From: a virus
Direction: 5' to 3' (one strand)
IMG/VR virus record: IMGVR_UViG_3300043773_001481
Span: 1 to 32,384 of that record
DNA: 32,384 nt
Shown here: in pieces, positions 4,874 to 29,849 of the stretch
Numbering within the stretch: position 1 is the stretch's first letter
How the letters are laid out: every line of letters begins with the position of its first letter
Notes under the pieces: generated by a model
Databases searched by the model: none
Told to the model about the DNA's origin: nothing
What the model saw: the letters and a program-made list of their open reading frames with translations, nothing else
Translations under genes and position numbers: made by a program

Positions 4874-5819
4874 ACGCCGCTACCTTCCGCTGGCCGAAGG
4901 CTGCGATCTGACCGTCGAGGAGCGTGATGGCGAGGCTCCGAAGATTCGCGGCATCGCTCCGCCGTGGGATTCGCTCTCCGTGGATCTCGGAGGCTTCCGC
5001 GAGAAATTCAGCTCGACGGCCTTCGACAAGGTACTCGCGAAGAAACGGATCGACGTTCCTCTCCTGTTCAACCACGACGACTCGCGCATCATCGCCAGGA
5101 CGACAAACGGAACGCTCCGAATCGAGAAGACCGACAAGGGTCTCGCCTACGAGGCCGACCCTGTCGCGACGCCGACGGCGGCGGAGGTGCTGACGCTCAT
5201 CCGCTCAAAAACGATCTTCGGGTCGTCCTTCGCCTTCACGGTCAATCCGAGCAAGGGGGAGACCTGGGAAGAAGACGAGCGAGGGAACGTCGTGCGGACC
5301 GTCACCGAGGCGTCCGGCCTTTACGATTTGTCGCCAGTGACGCGAGCCGCCTACCCATCGTCGGCGCTCTCGTCGCGATCCCTGGACGCCTGGCGGGCCG
5401 CCCGCGGAATGGTCCAGCACGGCCAGGCCGAGCGGTCGCTCACGATCTCGCTCGACTTCGACCAGACGTTCACCGCCGCCCCCGGGCTCTGGCGGTCGTT
5501 CGTGGCCGACGCCACCGGCCGCGGCTCGCGCGTCTATTGCATCACGCGACGCGAGGACACCGAGGCGAATCGCCACGAGCTGCGTCTGGCGTTCGGCGAC
5601 CTGTATGCCGAGCTGGCCGGCGTCCTGCTGTGCGGGCCGGACAAGCAAAAGCGGTCGGCCGCCCAGGACGCCGGCATCTCGGTCGACGTGTGGATCGACG
5701 ACTCGCCGGAGAAGATCCCGGCCTCCGAGGTCGCCCCGGCCGTGAAGACCTCGTCGCTCGCCGGTGCCCGGGCCGCTGCGGCGGCGGCAGTCGCGAGGAT
5801 GCGAGCCCATGCCGGCTAG
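4863..5819 (+). CDS. prohead protease fused to HAD-like domain
   Basis: A 318-residue two-domain protein. Residues 1-175 are an HK97-family prohead protease (peptidase U35): IRGIAPPWDS, candidate catalytic His71 in LLFNHD, Ser121/Ser122 in GSSFAF, and the closing SPVTRAAYP motif. Such proteases trim scaffold from capsid subunits. Residues 193-300 form a HAD-like hydrolase domain: DFDQT (Asp198, Asp200, Thr202), Thr228 in CITRR, a Lys near 261-263, and WIDD with Asp279-Asp280. The same HAD family is, to my knowledge, usually a free-standing phage protein of the DFDGT...WIDD type. The fusion is continuous without an internal stop. Confidence 0.88.
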   Translation: MQLERRYLPLAEGCDLTVEERDGEAPKIRGIAPPWDSLSVDLGGFREKFSSTAFDKVLAKKRIDVPLLFNHDDSRIIARTTNGTLRIEKTDKGLAYEADPVATPTAAEVLTLIRSKTIFGSSFAFTVNPSKGETWEEDERGNVVRTVTEASGLYDLSPVTRAAYPSSALSSRSLDAWRAARGMVQHGQAERSLTISLDFDQTFTAAPGLWRSFVADATGRGSRVYCITRREDTEANRHELRLAFGDLYAELAGVLLCGPDKQKRSAAQDAGISVDVWIDDSPEKIPASEVAPAVKTSSLAGARAAAAAAVARMRAHAG

Positions 5820-5964
5820 TTGCCCGAAGTGCGGGGGCCGCCTCCGCGTCGAGTCGAGCAAGCGGGCCGGCGACCGCCAGGTCCGCTACGTGGAGTGCCA
5901 ACAGTGCCGCGAGCGCCGCCGCCAGGTGGTGCCGGCCGATTCAGTCTGGAGACGAACCCGATGA
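5809..5964 (+). CDS. small zinc-ribbon protein
   Basis: A 51-residue protein with CPKCGGRLRVESSK and later CQQCRERRR, two CxxC pairs about 25 residues apart that make a zinc ribbon. The frame is open further upstream to 5764, but the ATG at 5809 begins directly before the Cys motif. It overlaps the end of the protease gene by 11 nt and the start of the next gene by an ATGA. The function is unknown; similar tiny zinc ribbons occur in many phage head modules. Confidence 0.65.
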   Translation: MPASCPKCGGRLRVESSKRAGDRQVRYVECQQCRERRRQVVPADSVWRRTR

Positions 5965-6332
5965 TCGCCGCCGCCCCGGTCGCTGCCGCCACCAATCTGG
6001 AGGACGGCCTGCTCGCGAAGATCGCCGCGTTCATCGACACCTCGAGGTCCGCCGCCGCCGACGGCATCACCTGGGCGGAGTTCGGCGAGCTGATGCTCGC
6101 CCTGCTGCGGCTCGTCGTGACCGCCCTCGACACGGTCTCGACGATGACCGGCCCAGAGAAGAAGGCCCTCGCGCTGTCGGCCGTGGCGAGCCTGTTCGAC
6201 GCGGTCGCCGACCAGGCCGTCCCGCTCGCCGTCTACCCGCTCTGGATTCTCGTCCGCTCGCCGGTGCGGTCGCTCGTGATCGCGATCGCCGCCGGTGCCA
6301 TAGAGCAGTTGCTGCCACTCGTGAGGGTCTGA
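5961..6332 (+). CDS. small protein with hydrophobic C-terminus
   Basis: A 123-residue hydrophobic protein of unknown function. Residues about 35-60 (ELMLALLRLVVTALDTVSTM) are amphipathic, and residues about 85-118 (AVPLAVYPLWILVRSPVRSLVIAIAAGAIEQLL) could be one or two membrane segments. The frame is open to 5820, but the ATG at 5961 makes a coupled ATGA overlap with the zinc-ribbon gene. It is the first of several membrane or Cys-containing products between the protease and capsid genes; a holin-like role is possible but unproven. Confidence 0.6.
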   Translation: MIAAAPVAAATNLEDGLLAKIAAFIDTSRSAAADGITWAEFGELMLALLRLVVTALDTVSTMTGPEKKALALSAVASLFDAVADQAVPLAVYPLWILVRSPVRSLVIAIAAGAIEQLLPLVRV

Positions 6333-19616: not shown

Positions 19617-20489
19617 TCAAGCAGGCGGCCGCAGCTCACGTGGGGCCGGGATGCCGGTCCCGGTGAGCGTCTGGTCTTCGTAGCTGGCCCGAAAGACGGC
19701 TGGCGTGTTCCCCAGGTGCCGGTGGCCGAGGCCGCGGGCCTGTAGTTCGACATCGGTGCCGCTGCCCCTGCGGATCCATTTCCAGGTGCCGGGCCTGACC
19801 CCGGCCTTCGCCACGAGCCGCGTCACTTGGTCCCTGAAGGTCTCCGGGCTTGTGGGCCACGGACATACCAGCCTTCGCGGACAGGCCTCCAGGGAGGCCC
19901 GCAGGGCCTCCAGCGTTGACGGAGACAGGCGGAAGGCAGACACCTTGGCGGTCTTACTCTGCGACAGCGTGCAAGCCCCGTCGGGTCCGATCTGGTCTAT
20001 CCGCAGCGTGACAAGATCGCCCCAGCGGATTCCGGAATCCCACGCCACTCGGATCGCGAGATCCCACCAGACCGCCCGCCGCAGCCCGCAGCGATGCCAG
20101 CGAGGTAGTTTGGCCGCCGCCGCCATGAGCCTCTCGACCTCCTCCTTCGTCCAGGCCACGACCACCAGCTCCGGCAGTCGGACACGTCGGACGCGGCGGG
20201 AGCGTGGCTCATCGCACAGGCCTTCATCGGAGGCCGCCCTCCAGAGTGCCAGGATTGCCTGTTTCTTGGCCCGCACGGTGTGGGGGGCCACGGTGGCCGA
20301 GTAGGCCTGTAGCCATTCCGATGCCAGCCGCTCGTCAAGTTCGTCGAGACGAACGGGCTTTCCTGCCCAGCGGTCAATGAGGTTGACGGCAATTTGGTAC
20401 TGCCGTACCGTCCCGCCCCGAATGTCTCGCTGGAGCTGGTATTCCTCGAGGTATTCGCGCAGGGTTTCGGGTCGTGCTCGTCGAATCAT
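19617..20489 (-). CDS. int: tyrosine recombinase (integrase)
   Basis: A 290-residue tyrosine recombinase, the only minus-strand gene. The N-terminal SAM-like core-binding domain (residues about 10-90, ending TVRAKKQAILALWRAASDEGL) precedes the catalytic domain with Arg155 in GIRWGDLVTL, a Lys near 179-182, Arg240, His258 in LGHRHLGN and the nucleophile Tyr270 in RASYED. The usual His of HxxR is replaced by Lys237 in KWIR. It integrates or excises the phage with the attachment core at 20611-20660. The next gene in the other direction is the excisionase-like protein at 20756. Confidence 0.85.
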   Translation of the reverse strand: MIRRARPETLREYLEEYQLQRDIRGGTVRQYQIAVNLIDRWAGKPVRLDELDERLASEWLQAYSATVAPHTVRAKKQAILALWRAASDEGLCDEPRSRRVRRVRLPELVVVAWTKEEVERLMAAAAKLPRWHRCGLRRAVWWDLAIRVAWDSGIRWGDLVTLRIDQIGPDGACTLSQSKTAKVSAFRLSPSTLEALRASLEACPRRLVCPWPTSPETFRDQVTRLVAKAGVRPGTWKWIRRGSGTDVELQARGLGHRHLGNTPAVFRASYEDQTLTGTGIPAPRELRPPA

Positions 20490-20610
20490 GGTAGCGCTCC
20501 AACGTAGGGCGCTCCGTGCCCGCGAGCGTGCCGACTCCCGGCACGGTTGGTGGTCTCAATCAAAAATCTTTCCGCACCACCATTACAGGCGGCTTAACCC
20601 CTCACGTAAG

Positions 20611-20660
20611 GCATCGGTCTACGGAACCGAAGGTTGCTGGTTCGAGCCCAGCGGGGTGTA
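20611..20660 (+). other. attachment core (attP): 3' part of tRNA-Arg(ACG)
   Basis: This segment has the 3' portion of a tRNA: anticodon stem TCGGT (20614-20618) with ACCGA (20626-20630), loop CTACGGA with anticodon ACG (20621-20623), T arm GCTGG (20636-20640) with CCAGC (20648-20652) and loop TTCGAGC, then GGGGTGT of the acceptor and an A. No D arm or 5' acceptor strand is present. Phages that enter tRNA genes carry exactly such a 3' copy. It lies about 120 nt from the integrase start. Confidence 0.75.
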
Positions 20661-24499: not shown

Positions 24500-24817
24500 A
24501 TGGGCACATACATCGAAGCTGACGCGGACCTTCCGCTGGTGGCGCTCTGCCGCCGCACGGATCCACCGACCTCGAGGTCGGCCGCGGCCAACGCGCCGAC
24601 GTTCGCCGGCAGCCACGAGGGGCGGATTCTCGCCGCCCTGGCGGCCGGCCCCGGCACGAAGGACGAGCTGGCCGGCCGGTGCGGGCTGACGGAGCAACAG
24701 GTCGCCCGCCGCATGCACGAGCTGCGGCGTCGCGGCCTGGTCGTGGAGATCGGCGAGGCGGTCTCGCCGACTGGGAATCGGGAGATGAGGTATCGGATCA
24801 CGGCGGCGTCGCGTTGA
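24500..24817 (+). CDS. winged-helix phage protein
   Basis: A 105-residue protein with RTDPPTSRSAAANAPTFAGSHEGRILAALAAGPGTKDELAGRCGLTEQQVARRMHELRRRGLVVEIG, a winged helix-turn-helix from about residue 40 to 90, and a final strand NREMRYRITA. This TDPxTS...ILxxLAxGPxTxxELA pattern is common among small phage wHTH regulators. The frame is open from 24425, but ATG 24500 after AGGG is preferred. It may regulate early genes. Confidence 0.7.
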   Translation: MGTYIEADADLPLVALCRRTDPPTSRSAAANAPTFAGSHEGRILAALAAGPGTKDELAGRCGLTEQQVARRMHELRRRGLVVEIGEAVSPTGNREMRYRITAASR

Positions 24818-24862
24818 CGTGCGGCCGGAGTTTTGGGTTGTTTCTGACACAGGGAGATAAAG

Positions 24863-25528
24863 ATGGCTACGAAGGACGTTCGGAGGGCTCGTTTTACCCT
24901 GAAGGGGATCACGCCCCTTTTGATGCACGCGGACGATGTAGAGGCTGCGTCGACGCTTGACGAGTGGAGGAAGGCACCAGGGAACAAGAACGTCAGCGTC
25001 CCGGGCGACGATCGCTCCCCGGCGTGGACATGGCAGACGTACCTCTACCGCGATGCGGATGGAATGATTGCCATGCCGGCGGACAACGTGATGGTCGCCC
25101 TGCGGCAGGCAGGCGCAAAGATGACGCTAAAGCGCCAGACGACGTTCAAGGCGATCACGCAAAGCGGGCTGCTGCTGACGGACGAGACGCTCGAGTTCAC
25201 CAACGGTGGCAAGCAGATCTCGGCGACTGACTTCGTCGCGGCTCGCGACGACAAGTTCACGGACCAGAAGAAGGCCGTCGAGAAGGCCGGATTCGAGTTG
25301 TCGGTCAAGCGGGCGAAAGTCGGCACGAGCAAGCACGTTCGCGTCCGGCCGATGTTTCGCTCGTGGAGCGTGTCCGGGGTGATTCAGATCATGGCCCCCG
25401 AGATCACGTTCGAGAGCTTGCAGACGCTGTTCGAGCTGGCAGGCGATGTCGGCCTGTGCGACTGGCGTCCTGGGTGCAGGACTCCAGGGAGGTTCGGCAT
25501 GTTTGAGGCGACTGTCTCAAAGGCATGA
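24863..25528 (+). CDS. conserved phage protein, RAMP-like appearance
   Basis: A 221-residue protein of a conserved phage family I know only by its pattern: it starts ARFTLKGITPLLMHADD, has MPADNVMVALRQAGAKM in the middle and ends WRPGCRTPGRFGMFEATV. The G-P-L-M start, PADN...ALR middle and Gly-rich end somewhat resemble Cas7-like RAMP domains, but key features of those proteins are not evident, so RNA binding is only a guess. It lies among recombination and replication genes, with AGGGAGA upstream. Confidence 0.5.
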   Translation: MATKDVRRARFTLKGITPLLMHADDVEAASTLDEWRKAPGNKNVSVPGDDRSPAWTWQTYLYRDADGMIAMPADNVMVALRQAGAKMTLKRQTTFKAITQSGLLLTDETLEFTNGGKQISATDFVAARDDKFTDQKKAVEKAGFELSVKRAKVGTSKHVRVRPMFRSWSVSGVIQIMAPEITFESLQTLFELAGDVGLCDWRPGCRTPGRFGMFEATVSKA

Positions 25529-25532
25529 TTCA

Positions 25533-25808
25533 GGCGTGGCCTGTCAAGGCCTGGCCGGGCCGGGCTGGGCCCGGCATGGCGAGGCCGGGCTAGGCCGGGC
25601 CCGGCTGGGCTTGGCGAGGCAAGGGAGCCAATGGCTCAACAGACAGGCCAAGCAAGGCTCGGCAAGGCAAGGCAGGGCTCGGCAGGGCGTGGCGAGGCTA
25701 GGGAGCCTATGGCTCACCAGACAATCCAAGCGTGGCGCGGCGGGGCACGGCAAGGCAGGGCTCGGCAGGGCGTGGCATGGCTCGGCGAGGCAAGGTGCCC
25801 AATGGGCA
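25533..25808 (+). repeat. GGCNN pentamer array 1 (three cassettes)
   Basis: Three tracts of period-5 GGCNN, with 15, 9 and 12 uninterrupted units, each closed by a hairpin at 25625-25637, 25703-25715 and 25796-25808. The first two hairpins are GAGCC with GGCTC around AAT or TAT; the third is TGCCC with GGGCA, a compensatory change. Between hairpin and next tract runs a linker like ACAGACAATCCAA. The NN positions vary freely while GGC is kept. The array fills the 302-nt gap between two genes and ends 11 nt before a Shine-Dalgarno sequence. Confidence 0.9.
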
Positions 25809-25830
25809 GTTTCACAACAGGAGAAAAGAG

Positions 25831-26292
25831 ATGATCGACAAGAAGTACGACGCCGAAATCGACGCGGTTCTGGATGCTGTGGCGGTGTTTCCGAAGGGAA
25901 CGACCGTTCCGTGGGCGGTGATTGAATCCGCGATGGGGCGGCACCGTGATGAGACTGGAGGCTGGACGATCATCCGTCGTGCTCGCCGCAGGCTTCTGCG
26001 GGACCGCCAGGTGGCCTGCCTTCCTGACCCGACCGTCGGGCTTCGGCTGCTTTCAGACATGGAGGCCGCCACGGAGATTCCGGAACTGCGGCAGAAGAAG
26101 GCCAAGAGGCAGATCGCGCGAGGGCTTCGCGAGACGGACGCGATCGACACGTCGCAACTCACCAAGCACGCCAGCGTTGCGCTTGCGATGTCGAGGAAGC
26201 ACATGAAGGCGGAGCGGCTCGCGTTGTCTCGCGCGAGGCGAGAGGTACAGTCGCTCACAAAGCCGACTCGGTCGGCGATGTCGGCGCAATGA
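25831..26292 (+). CDS. hypothetical protein between pentamer arrays
   Basis: A 153-residue protein flanked on both sides by GGCNN arrays. The N-terminal 80 residues may form a winged-helix-like fold (AVLDAVAVFPKGTTVPWAVIESAMGRHRDETGGWTIIRRARRRLLRDR); the C-terminal half is basic and helical (LRQKKAKRQIARGLRE, KHMKAERLALSRARREVQSL), suited to nucleic acid binding. Start ATG 25831 is preceded by AGGAG 8 nt away. Whether it interacts with the arrays that border it is unknown but worth testing. Confidence 0.65.
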   Translation: MIDKKYDAEIDAVLDAVAVFPKGTTVPWAVIESAMGRHRDETGGWTIIRRARRRLLRDRQVACLPDPTVGLRLLSDMEAATEIPELRQKKAKRQIARGLRETDAIDTSQLTKHASVALAMSRKHMKAERLALSRARREVQSLTKPTRSAMSAQ

Positions 26293-26308
26293 TCTGAAGC
26301 CTATTAGT

Positions 26309-26486
26309 GGCGAGGCTCGGCGGGGCTCGGCATGGCCAGGCACGGCCGGGCGGGGCCCGGCGAGGCAAGGGAGCCAATGGCTCGACAGACAATCCAATCG
26401 CGGCGAGGCATGGCTGGGCATGGCTGGGCAGGGCCAGGCGCGGCAGGGCTCGGCGCGGCTGGGCAAGGCAAGGGAGCCAATGGCTC
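26309..26486 (+). repeat. GGCNN pentamer array 2 (two cassettes)
   Basis: Tracts of 12 and 14 uninterrupted GGCNN units end in hairpins GAGCC-AAT-GGCTC at 26371-26383 and 26474-26486. The linker after the first hairpin is ACAGACAATCCAA, as in array 1. Hairpin-to-hairpin distances here and in array 1 (78, 93 and 103 nt) differ by multiples of five, the sign of whole-pentamer gain or loss. The array lies between the preceding small gene and an HNH gene, whose AAGGAG follows 20 nt later. Confidence 0.9.
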
Positions 26487-26517
26487 ACTTAAACGGGTAG
26501 ACCCTAAGGAGCAATTT

Positions 26518-26976
26518 ATGGTTGATGGCGACTGGAAGGCGATCGAAGACGACCGCGAGAAGTACGCGGCCTATCTGTGCAGTCGAGAGTGGTCCGTCCT
26601 AAAGAAGGAGGTCCACGAGCGAGCTGGCGGCGTGTGTGAGCGGTGCCGGCTCAACGGAATCGACTCCGTGCATCACCTGACCTACGCCAGGAAGTACCGC
26701 GAGCGGATCGACGACCTCCTGGCCCTGTGCAACGGGTGCCACGCGTACATACACGCGAAGACCGACACGGATCCGGCGAAGAACGTCGTCCTGTCCTGCT
26801 ACACGCAGGCCGGCGATCTGGTGATGCCGACAAGCCAAGGCCTGGTCGACCTCACCAGCTCGATCGGGATCTCCGTCTGGAAGGGCCTGGTTGATGTCGA
26901 CGAGCTGCGTCGGAACATCGAGCTGGCGATCGAGTCTGGCCTGACACTCCGCAGGAAGGACGAAGATGTCCAGTAG
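26518..26976 (+). CDS. HNH endonuclease 2
   Basis: A 152-residue HNH protein. Cys40 and Cys43 with Cys71 and Cys74 are zinc ligands; His52-His53 in VHHLTY and His75 in CNGCHAYIH complete the HNH core. Residues before the HNH region are charged helix. AAGGAG at 26506-26511 precedes ATG 26518. HNH proteins in early regions are often homing endonucleases; placement next to array 2 could mean it targets or moves with the array, but this is speculation. Confidence 0.8.
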   Translation: MVDGDWKAIEDDREKYAAYLCSREWSVLKKEVHERAGGVCERCRLNGIDSVHHLTYARKYRERIDDLLALCNGCHAYIHAKTDTDPAKNVVLSCYTQAGDLVMPTSQGLVDLTSSIGISVWKGLVDVDELRRNIELAIESGLTLRRKDEDVQ

Positions 26977-28871: not shown

Positions 28872-29024
28872 ATGGCGATCGTCTACCGGCCGCGAAACCT
28901 CCGGATTCTGAGCCTGCTCCGCCGCAAGCTGCGGCGGCGACCAGCCACGCCCAACACCATCCTGACCGAGGCCGGCGATCAGCTCCGGACCGAGGCAGGG
29001 GCTTACCTCCGCACGGAGCAGTAA
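28872..29024 (+). CDS. tiny virion-associated protein
   Basis: A 50-residue protein with IVYRPRNLRILSLLRRKLRRRP, then NTILTEAGDQLRTEAGAYLRTEQ, where the TEAG/TE repeat is typical of short proteins next to phage tail fibre genes. The function is unknown. It starts 7 nt after the HTH gene's stop and ends 3 nt before the fibre gene. Confidence 0.55.
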   Translation: MAIVYRPRNLRILSLLRRKLRRRPATPNTILTEAGDQLRTEAGAYLRTEQ

Positions 29025-29027
29025 CCG

Positions 29028-29849
29028 ATGCCCGACGTGAAGATCTCGCAGCTCCCGGCCGGCACGGCCAACGCGAACGCCGTGGTGCCCGCCACGAACG
29101 CCGCCGGCACGACGACCCAGAAGGTGACGCTCGGCTCGATCCGCGATCTGCCGCACACCCACGCGGTCGCCGACGTGACCGGCCTCCAGACGGCCCTCGA
29201 CGGCAAGCAGGCCAGCGGCAGCTACGCCGCGGCGAGCCACGGACACGCGATCTCCGATGTGACCGGTCTCCAGACCGCCCTTGACGGCAAGCAAGCTTCC
29301 GGGAGCTACCTCACGGCCGTCCCGGACGGAAGCGTCACGGACGCGAAGATCGCGACCGCCGGGCTGTCGGCCTCGAGCATTAACTGGGTGGCCGTCACGG
29401 CCTGGGCACCAAACACCGCCTACGCCAAGGGGGCATTGGTTCACTATCTGGGCATCACCTACCGGCGAAGCGTGGCCGGCACGACCGGCGCGACGTTCAA
29501 TGCCGCCAACTGGCAGCAGATGACCGCCCCCGTGAACGTGACGACGACGCCGGCCCAGATCACGAGCAACAGGAACGACTACGCGCTCGAGATCGCCACG
29601 AACGACATTTTCCGGATCTCGTCGAGTGCCGCCGTGAACATCACCGGCATTACCGCCGGCCTGTTCGACGGCCACGCGATCCTGCTCCGGAACGTCGGCT
29701 CGTTCGCGATCACGCTCCGCCACCAGGACGCCGCGAGCGCCGCCGCGAACCGGCTCATCTCGCCGTGGGCGGGCGACGTGGTGGTGTCGGCCAATAGCTC
29801 CATGCTGCTCATGTATGACTCGACGCTCTCGCGTTGGGTCGTCACCTGA
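29028..29849 (+). CDS. tail fibre protein
   Basis: A 273-residue tail fibre. The N-terminal part (residues 1-40) is the attachment region; residues 43-98 hold two 28-residue repeats of HxHxxxDVTGLQTALDGKQASGSY, typical of fibre shaft repeats. A short SCHITIN/carbohydrate-type module (WAPNTAYAKGALVHYLGITYRRSVAGTTGATFNAANWQQM, residues about 125-165) and a C-terminal beta-rich part (FRISSSAAVNITGI to SRWVVT) follow. The module and the C-terminus likely bind the host cell surface. Confidence 0.85.
   Translation: MPDVKISQLPAGTANANAVVPATNAAGTTTQKVTLGSIRDLPHTHAVADVTGLQTALDGKQASGSYAAASHGHAISDVTGLQTALDGKQASGSYLTAVPDGSVTDAKIATAGLSASSINWVAVTAWAPNTAYAKGALVHYLGITYRRSVAGTTGATFNAANWQQMTAPVNVTTTPAQITSNRNDYALEIATNDIFRISSSAAVNITGITAGLFDGHAILLRNVGSFAITLRHQDAASAAANRLISPWAGDVVVSANSSMLLMYDSTLSRWVVT

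What the first reader, a model, noticed from the sequence alone, without database searches (positions are those of the whole stretch)
25533..26486. Two intergenic arrays of GGC-NN pentamers split by hairpins
Sequence: five tracts of 9 to 15 uninterrupted GGCNN units (62 in all), each ending in a hairpin. GGC is fixed, NN varies. Simple slippage would copy NN too, so GGC seems to be kept by selection. A 5-nt period cannot be coding. Known analogy: TRAP binds about 11 (G/U)AG triplets separated by two variable nucleotides, one per ring subunit. Inference: these transcripts could be wrapped by a ring-shaped RNA-binding protein. Other options are a recombination linker, a replication element, or two-tetrad G-quadruplexes (GG spaced by 3 nt).
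Basis: partly seen in the sequence, partly recalled or inferred. Interest (0 to 1): 0.9.

Follow-up and report, generated by a model that had tools for sequence, protein, structure and literature searches.

The report
Type II VIPR guide-RNA locus in phage
The strange GGC-NN arrays are five guide RNAs of a recently reported phage-encoded, CRISPR-like system called VIPR: a Cas7-like protein encoded next door is expected to bind the fixed GGC letters, while the variable NN letters spell out which DNA, probably of rival phages, is to be silenced.

Summary
In detail: five uninterrupted GGCNN tracts (15, 9, 12, 12 and 14 units; 62 in all), on the coding strand, each followed by a 5-bp hairpin. The gene directly upstream (24863-25528, phrog_4652, unannotated) is a homologue of Vipr, a RAMP/Cas7-fold protein whose SUSP1 member is in the PDB (36pp). 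The gene between the arrays (25831-26292) is a homologue of SUSP1 vap1. This matches a 2026 preprint (PMC13142463) that defines VIPR: a Vipr protein plus vrRNAs of alternating GGY/NN repeats whose NN dinucleotides read target DNA with a one-base skip. Protein and arrays are linked in both directions: of 106 viral loci fetched only for a high-entropy GGC-NN tract, 81 encode Vipr; of 80 loci fetched only for Vipr, 46 carry such tracts on the vipr strand, 1 on the other strand, none for scrambled cores. The hairpin covaries with a 69%-identical relative, and the NN have turned over completely. No target of four decoded guides was found above chance, so what this locus silences is unknown. It is a new type II member of a known kind, probably in a temperate phage of Planctomycetota, and not a TRAP-like ring site.

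The parts
24863..25528 (+). vipr gene (221 aa, phrog_4652): RAMP/Cas7-fold protein expected to bind the vrRNAs
   Evidence: Family profile hits PDB 36pp 'SUSP1 Vipr protein' E=1.6e-45, single sequence E=9e-8; AF2 model pLDDT 93.5, pTM 0.89; best folds type VII Cas7 and Csm3, Z up to 11.8
25548..25622 (+). vrRNA 1, repeat tract of 15 GGCNN (in-phase imperfect units from 25533)
   Evidence: decoded NN: CT.CG.CG.TG.CC.AT.GA.CG.TA.CG.CC.TG.TT.GA.AA
25625..25637 (+). vrRNA 1 tail hairpin GAGCC-AAT-GGCTC
   Evidence: sequence; covariation
25656..25700 (+). vrRNA 2, repeat tract of 9 GGCNN
   Evidence: NN: TC.AA.AA.AG.TC.AG.GT.GA.TA
25703..25715 (+). vrRNA 2 tail hairpin GAGCC-TAT-GGCTC
   Evidence: covariation
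25734..25793 (+). vrRNA 3, repeat tract of 12 GGCNN; shares five units (AA.AG.TC.AG.GT) with vrRNA 2
25796..25808 (+). vrRNA 3 tail hairpin TGCCC-AAT-GGGCA (three of five pairs swapped relative to the other tails)
   Evidence: covariation
25831..26292 (+). vap1 homologue (153 aa), the VIPR accessory protein of type II
   Evidence: profile grown from SUSP1 vap1 (NC_028808 AVU07_agp038) hits it at E=9e-24, and the reverse search hits SUSP1 vap1 at E=7.5e-22
26309..26368 (+). vrRNA 4, repeat tract of 12 GGCNN
   Evidence: NN: GA.TC.GG.TC.AT.CA.AC.CG.GG.CC.GA.AA
26371..26383 (+). vrRNA 4 tail hairpin GAGCC-AAT-GGCTC
   Evidence: covariation
26402..26471 (+). vrRNA 5, repeat tract of 14 GGCNN
   Evidence: NN: GA.AT.TG.AT.TG.AG.CA.GC.AG.TC.GC.TG.AA.AA
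26474..26486 (+). vrRNA 5 tail hairpin GAGCC-AAT-GGCTC
   Evidence: covariation
24793..26529 (+). the whole VIPR cassette, replaced by an unrelated stretch of about 600 bp in the close relative L139
   Evidence: blastn: 92.6% identity up to 24792, 91.3% from 26530 on, nothing between

Best explanation
The locus is a type II VIPR system (Viral Interference Programmable Repeat) carried by a temperate phage. Five vrRNAs are transcribed from the spaces around vap1. Vipr subunits, Cas7-like, are expected to bind one GGC-NN repeat each and form a filament on the RNA, capped by the small 3' hairpin. The fixed GGC anchors each subunit; the NN bases are read against DNA with one target base skipped per repeat (NNx NNx ...). 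The bound complex, helped by Vap1, would repress the matching genes of a competing phage, prophage or satellite in the same host. Shown here: the anatomy, the homology and fold of Vipr, the vap1 homologue, strand-specific genetic linkage of arrays and vipr, covariation of the hairpin, turnover of NN, and presence/absence of the cassette between relatives. Shown by the preprint for the SUSP1 and P. fulva systems: RNA binding, the one-base skip and repression. Inferred for this locus: transcription, RNP formation, filament, targets.
For: vipr homology and fold; vap1 homology in both directions; published definition of VIPR with GGY/NN vrRNAs of 9-16 repeats and a 3' tail (PMC13142463); 81 of 106 viral loci picked only for a GGCNN tract and of high NN entropy encode Vipr, 2 more in the full records; in bacterial genome loci 4 of 7 high-entropy against 1 of 113 low-entropy loci, Fisher P=2e-5; reciprocal: 46 of 80 loci picked only by Vipr have a tract on the vipr strand, 1 on the other, 0 for YGG, GYG, GGA and GGG cores; NN near-uniform in mid-tract (3.93 of 4 bits over 2708 units), biased only in the last two or three units; relative L131 (69% identical Vipr) keeps vipr, vap1, the arrays and hairpins, but no guide is shared, best 4 of 12 units; hairpin 100% paired in 11 tails, 3 of 5 pairs with compensatory change; mycobacteriophage LittleE, Gordonia phage Trine, P. 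aeruginosa phage LESphi2 and SUSP1 itself show the same vipr + GGYNN layout.
Against: No target of the decoded guides was found above chance: exact 9-unit cores of guides 1 and 3 in IMG/VR match a few contigs but barely extend, guide 5 has none, and guides 1, 3, 4, 5 in 382 Planctomycetota genomes give at best 2-3-mismatch hits, at about the rate of the reversed control. My own attempt to see the one-base skip in about 4 Mb of fetched loci (both strands) showed no difference between skips 0-3. Expression of the vrRNAs is not shown here. The tail is a plain 13-nt hairpin, not the pseudoknot described for SUSP1.
Confidence: 0.95

Rival explanations
1. TRAP-like ring site: an oligomeric ring protein wraps the leader RNA and regulates the downstream gene, with NN as neutral spacers.
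For: Strict 5-nt period with a fixed triplet, location just upstream of ribosome-binding sites.
Against: Tract length varies freely, 8 to over 20 units, not a fixed ring number; the co-inherited neighbour has a Cas7 fold; NN are near-uniform and turn over completely between relatives while GGC stays.
Confidence: 0.02
2. Autoregulation or decoy only: Vipr binds GGCNN leaders to control its own operon or to titrate a factor, without reading NN against DNA.
For: Tracts lie within the operon, in front of vap1 and the next gene; no target was found here for four guides.
Against: Reprogrammable NN-directed repression was shown for the SUSP1 system (PMC13142463); several different guides per locus and their full turnover fit target reading better.
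Confidence: 0.05
3. DNA-level element: recombination linker, replication element or two-tetrad G-quadruplex.
For: G-rich strand, phage early region, cassette ends near the arrays.
Against: C at position 3 (or T in relatives) is as fixed as GG, which a quadruplex does not need; motif is locked to the vipr strand (46 to 1) and to the presence of vipr; hairpin stems covary.
Confidence: 0.01
4. Microsatellite (slippage) array without function.
For: Most GGCNN runs of 10 or more in bacterial genomes are of this kind.
Against: Here NN entropy is 3.76 bits with no excess of adjacent identical units; viral tracts are high-entropy, chromosomal ones mostly low.
Confidence: 0.005

Closest known systems
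VIPR type II, Escherichia phage SUSP1 (PMC13142463; PDB 36pp; NC_028808)
   Same: vipr of the same family (E=1.6e-45), vap1 homologue, several vrRNAs of GGY/NN repeats with a structured 3' tail on the vipr strand
   Different: Window vrRNAs are GGC throughout (SUSP1 mostly GGT); tail is a 5-bp, 3-nt-loop hairpin and not a described pseudoknot; order is vipr - 3 vrRNAs - vap1 - 2 vrRNAs, whereas SUSP1 has one upstream and three downstream of vipr-vap1; probable temperate phage of Planctomycetota
Class 1 CRISPR effectors (Cas7 of type VII, Csm3 of type III-A)
   Same: RAMP/RRM fold with conserved glycine-rich C-terminal segment; expected filament on a guide RNA
   Different: About 10-15% identity, one small protein, no CRISPR repeats, no adaptation genes, guide letters interrupted every 5 nt
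TRAP and its (G/U)AG-NN leader sites (from general knowledge)
   Same: Triplet plus two free bases, period 5, RNA
   Different: Ring of fixed size and unrelated protein; free bases carry no information there
Start-associated sequences of cluster K mycobacteriophages (PMC3203893)
   Same: Repeated elements in front of phage genes
   Different: Fixed conserved sequence, not a programmable repeat; only the paper's listing was seen, no sequence comparison made

Membership tests
VIPR system | Vipr protein (RAMP homologue of the Vipr clade) | tested here: met
   Profile and single-sequence matches to PDB 36pp SUSP1 Vipr; Cas7/Csm3 fold
VIPR system | vrRNAs of alternating GGY/NN, about 9-16 repeats, NN hypervariable | tested here: met
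   9-15 uninterrupted units per tract; 16 of 16 NN types; no guide shared with L131
VIPR system | Invariable structured 3' tail after the repeats | tested here: met
   Five hairpins, covarying with L131; no structure beyond the hairpin was tested
VIPR system | Mostly phage- or provirus-encoded, minimal locus of vipr + vap with long intergenic regions | tested here: met
   IMG/VR record with terminase, major head protein, tRNA att site; cassette 24793-26529
VIPR system | vrRNA transcription and copurification with Vipr | not testable with these tools
   Needs small-RNA sequencing and pull-down
VIPR system | NN dinucleotides match targets with a one-base skip, in competing mobile elements | tested here: inconclusive
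   No target above chance for guides 1, 3, 4, 5; guide 2 not searched on its own
VIPR type II | vap1 accessory gene (predicted DNA-binding) | tested here: met
   25831-26292 in the vap1 family by reciprocal profile searches. The assignment to type II rests on vap1 alone; the preprint's type phylogeny could not be used
CRISPR-Cas | CRISPR repeat-spacer array with identical repeats and cas1/cas2 | tested here: not met
   Tandem-repeat search shows no such array; repeats are 5 nt with 2 nt variable. The ten proteins scanned around the arrays match no cas family; not every window ORF was scanned
TRAP leader | TRAP (TrpBP) protein in a ring of fixed size | not tested
   No search with the TRAP family itself was run; the linked protein has a Cas7 fold and tract length is variable

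The most novel reading that the evidence does not exclude
Within VIPR, this branch of planctomycete-phage systems uses a minimal guide: a plain 13-nt, 3-nt-loop hairpin as the whole 3' handle, with the last one or two repeats (GA.AA / AA.AA) belonging to the handle and not to the guide; and vrRNAs 2 and 3, which share five units, aim at homologous sites of related rivals.
Probability: 0.4. Interest if true: 0.45.

Novelty: new member of a known kind. Interest (0 to 1): 0.42.

Why it matters
A reader with no tools spotted, from raw sequence, the signature of an RNA-guided system that was first described only in 2026. The link is now supported by a route independent of the preprint's: pattern first, protein second, then the reverse, with strand and motif controls. 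It adds a probable phage of Planctomycetota with five decodable guides and a well-defined, swappable cassette. It also gives an annotation for phrog_4652, 'unknown function' in PHROGs, and a simple sequence test (high-entropy GGYNN runs next to phrog_4652) to find such loci in viral metagenomes and to tell them from ordinary GGCNN microsatellites.

Tried and rejected
Coding origin: tracts stay open in several frames only because GGCNN yields a stop only for NN=TA, which occurs; rejected. Known RNA families: no Rfam match at the arrays. tRNA-like elements beside arrays in LittleE and L027 looked like T-arms, but ARAGORN found no tRNA there; not pursued. The plasmid hit (Salmonella pSA20021456.1) is a pure GGCAA microsatellite. 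Orientation of arrays relative to crude ORF calls was noisy and was replaced by the vipr-strand test. Skip-rule test in fetched loci: no signal, database too small. Target searches in IMG/VR and in 382 Planctomycetota genomes: nothing above chance. HNH gene 26518-26976 as part of the system: rejected, since it is kept at 96% in L139, which lacks the cassette. PADLOC has no model for vipr or vap1.

Full report
Observation. The window holds five uninterrupted GGCNN tracts of 15, 9, 12, 12 and 14 units (25548-25622, 25656-25700, 25734-25793, 26309-26368, 26402-26471), all on the + strand, and no other run of four or more on either strand. The reversed pattern gives no match where the forward one gives 32. 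NN takes all 16 values, 3.76 of 4 bits, and adjacent identical units are not in excess (3 against 3.8). Each tract is followed by GG and a 5-bp hairpin with a 3-nt loop.

How common it is. In those viral contigs NN is mostly of high entropy; in a similar scan of bacterial genomes most runs are low-entropy microsatellites. So two different things share the motif, and the window belongs to the viral, high-entropy one.

The protein partner. Loci fetched for the array alone turned out to share one protein family. Starting from the gene directly upstream of the window's arrays (24863-25528), iterated profile searches found relatives in 85 of the 120 viral loci, among them 81 of the 106 loci with high-entropy tracts, and in 2 more of the full viral records. 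In bacterial genome loci it occurs in 4 of 7 high-entropy and 1 of 113 low-entropy loci (Fisher P=2e-5). The reverse test used loci fetched only by the protein: 46 of 80 carry a GGY-NN tract of seven or more units on the strand of the gene, 1 on the opposite strand, and none for the cores YGG, GYG, GGA and GGG. All 77 aligned members belong to phrog_4652, which has no function assigned.

What the protein is. The family profile matches a solved structure, PDB 36pp, 'SUSP1 Vipr protein', at E=1.6e-45, and the window sequence alone at 9e-8. The AlphaFold2 model (pLDDT 93.5, pTM 0.89) is closest to Cas7 of type VII and Csm3 of type III-A CRISPR complexes (Z up to 11.8 over 163 residues). The preprint behind the name (PMC13142463, first posted April 2026, version 2 June 2026) describes VIPR: a phage-encoded RAMP protein, vrRNAs of 9-16 alternating GGY/NN repeats with a 3' tail, reading double-stranded DNA through the NN with one base skipped per repeat, and silencing rival phages and satellites; an accessory gene (vap) is typical and seven types are named.

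Membership. The window meets the features that could be tested decisively: Vipr homologue and fold; tracts of the right kind and length; a structured 3' tail; phage genome; and a vap. The gene between the arrays, 25831-26292, is a vap1 homologue: a profile grown from SUSP1 vap1 finds it at E=9e-24 and the reverse search finds SUSP1 vap1 at 7.5e-22, which places the locus in type II. Not testable here: transcription and RNP formation. Inconclusive: targets.

Evolution. The relative L131 (69% identical Vipr) keeps the order vipr, arrays, vap1, arrays and the tail hairpins, but shares no guide (best 4 of 12 units). Over 11 tails the hairpin is 100% paired; three of its five pairs show changes on both sides, and the covariation score (0.58) is reached by none of 500 shuffles. 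The close relative L139 (96% in the next gene) lacks the cassette: homology stops at 24792 and resumes at 26530, with an unrelated stretch of about 600 bp in place. I conclude that VIPR is a swappable module here, that the hairpin is kept by structure, and that guides turn over quickly.

Handle. Over 424 distinct tracts, NN is near-uniform in mid-tract (3.93 bits) and drops to 3.6 and 3.2 bits in the last two units (AA, AG, AT, GA). In the window, four of five tracts end in GA.AA or AA.AA. I infer that the last one or two repeats belong to the fixed 3' handle.

Targets. Read as NNx, the guides give patterns such as CTNCGNCGNTGNCCNATNGANCGNTANCGNCCNTGNTTNGA for vrRNA 1. Exact nine-unit cores of guides 1 and 3 in IMG/VR gave 3 and 5 stretches; none extends beyond the core except one by a single unit (10 of 12); guide 5 gave none. 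In 382 genomes of Planctomycetota, with up to 3 mismatches, guide 1 gave 0 genomes, guide 5 gave 2, guide 4 gave 6 (best 2 mismatches) and guide 3 gave 4, against 0, 0, 2 and 4 for the reversed control. I therefore claim no target. Guide 2 (9 units) was not searched alone.

Host. The ORF at 19617-20489 (minus strand) reads by eye as a tyrosine integrase and lies beside a tRNA-like site at 20597-20660. Forty-five bases of that site match without mismatch a tRNA-Arg(ACG) gene in the genome behind L254, a Planctomycetaceae MAG. The phage is thus probably a temperate phage of Planctomycetota; this is inference from one att match.

Verdict. The finding is real and very probably functional, but its kind was described shortly before; it is a new member of a known kind.

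Noticed in passing
window 20597-20660: tRNA-like sequence (27.8 bits, just under Rfam's cut-off) next to an integrase-like ORF; 45 nt identical to tRNA-Arg(ACG) of a Planctomycetaceae MAG: a probable attP.
   Followed up: partly
window 25656-25700 and 25734-25793: vrRNAs 2 and 3 share five consecutive NN units (AA.AG.TC.AG.GT), either by duplication or because they aim at homologous targets.
   Followed up: no
L260 (Mycobacterium phage LittleE) 2996-4790; L027 6900-7200; L265, L278: In actinobacterial phages the tails beside GGYNN tracts contain GGTTCGANTCC, a tRNA T-arm-like hairpin: apparently a different, tRNA-like handle type.
   Followed up: partly
L030, L033, L039, L068, L072, L078: Consecutive tracts joined by a frame step (such as GGCAGGC), i.e. 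long linked arrays, perhaps the preprint's 'staggered' arrays.
   Followed up: no
records of L009, L013, L017, L111 and others: About 23 viral records with high-entropy GGYNN tracts have no detectable Vipr: fragments, a diverged Vipr, or vrRNA-only elements such as satellites.
   Followed up: partly
L139 about 5397-6012: In the relative lacking VIPR, the same slot holds an unrelated stretch with its own apparent gene: a cassette-exchange site.
   Followed up: no
window 28955-29018 and 29160-29317: Short tandem repeat (period 24) and an internal duplication of about 74 bp within the ORF 29028-29849.
   Followed up: no
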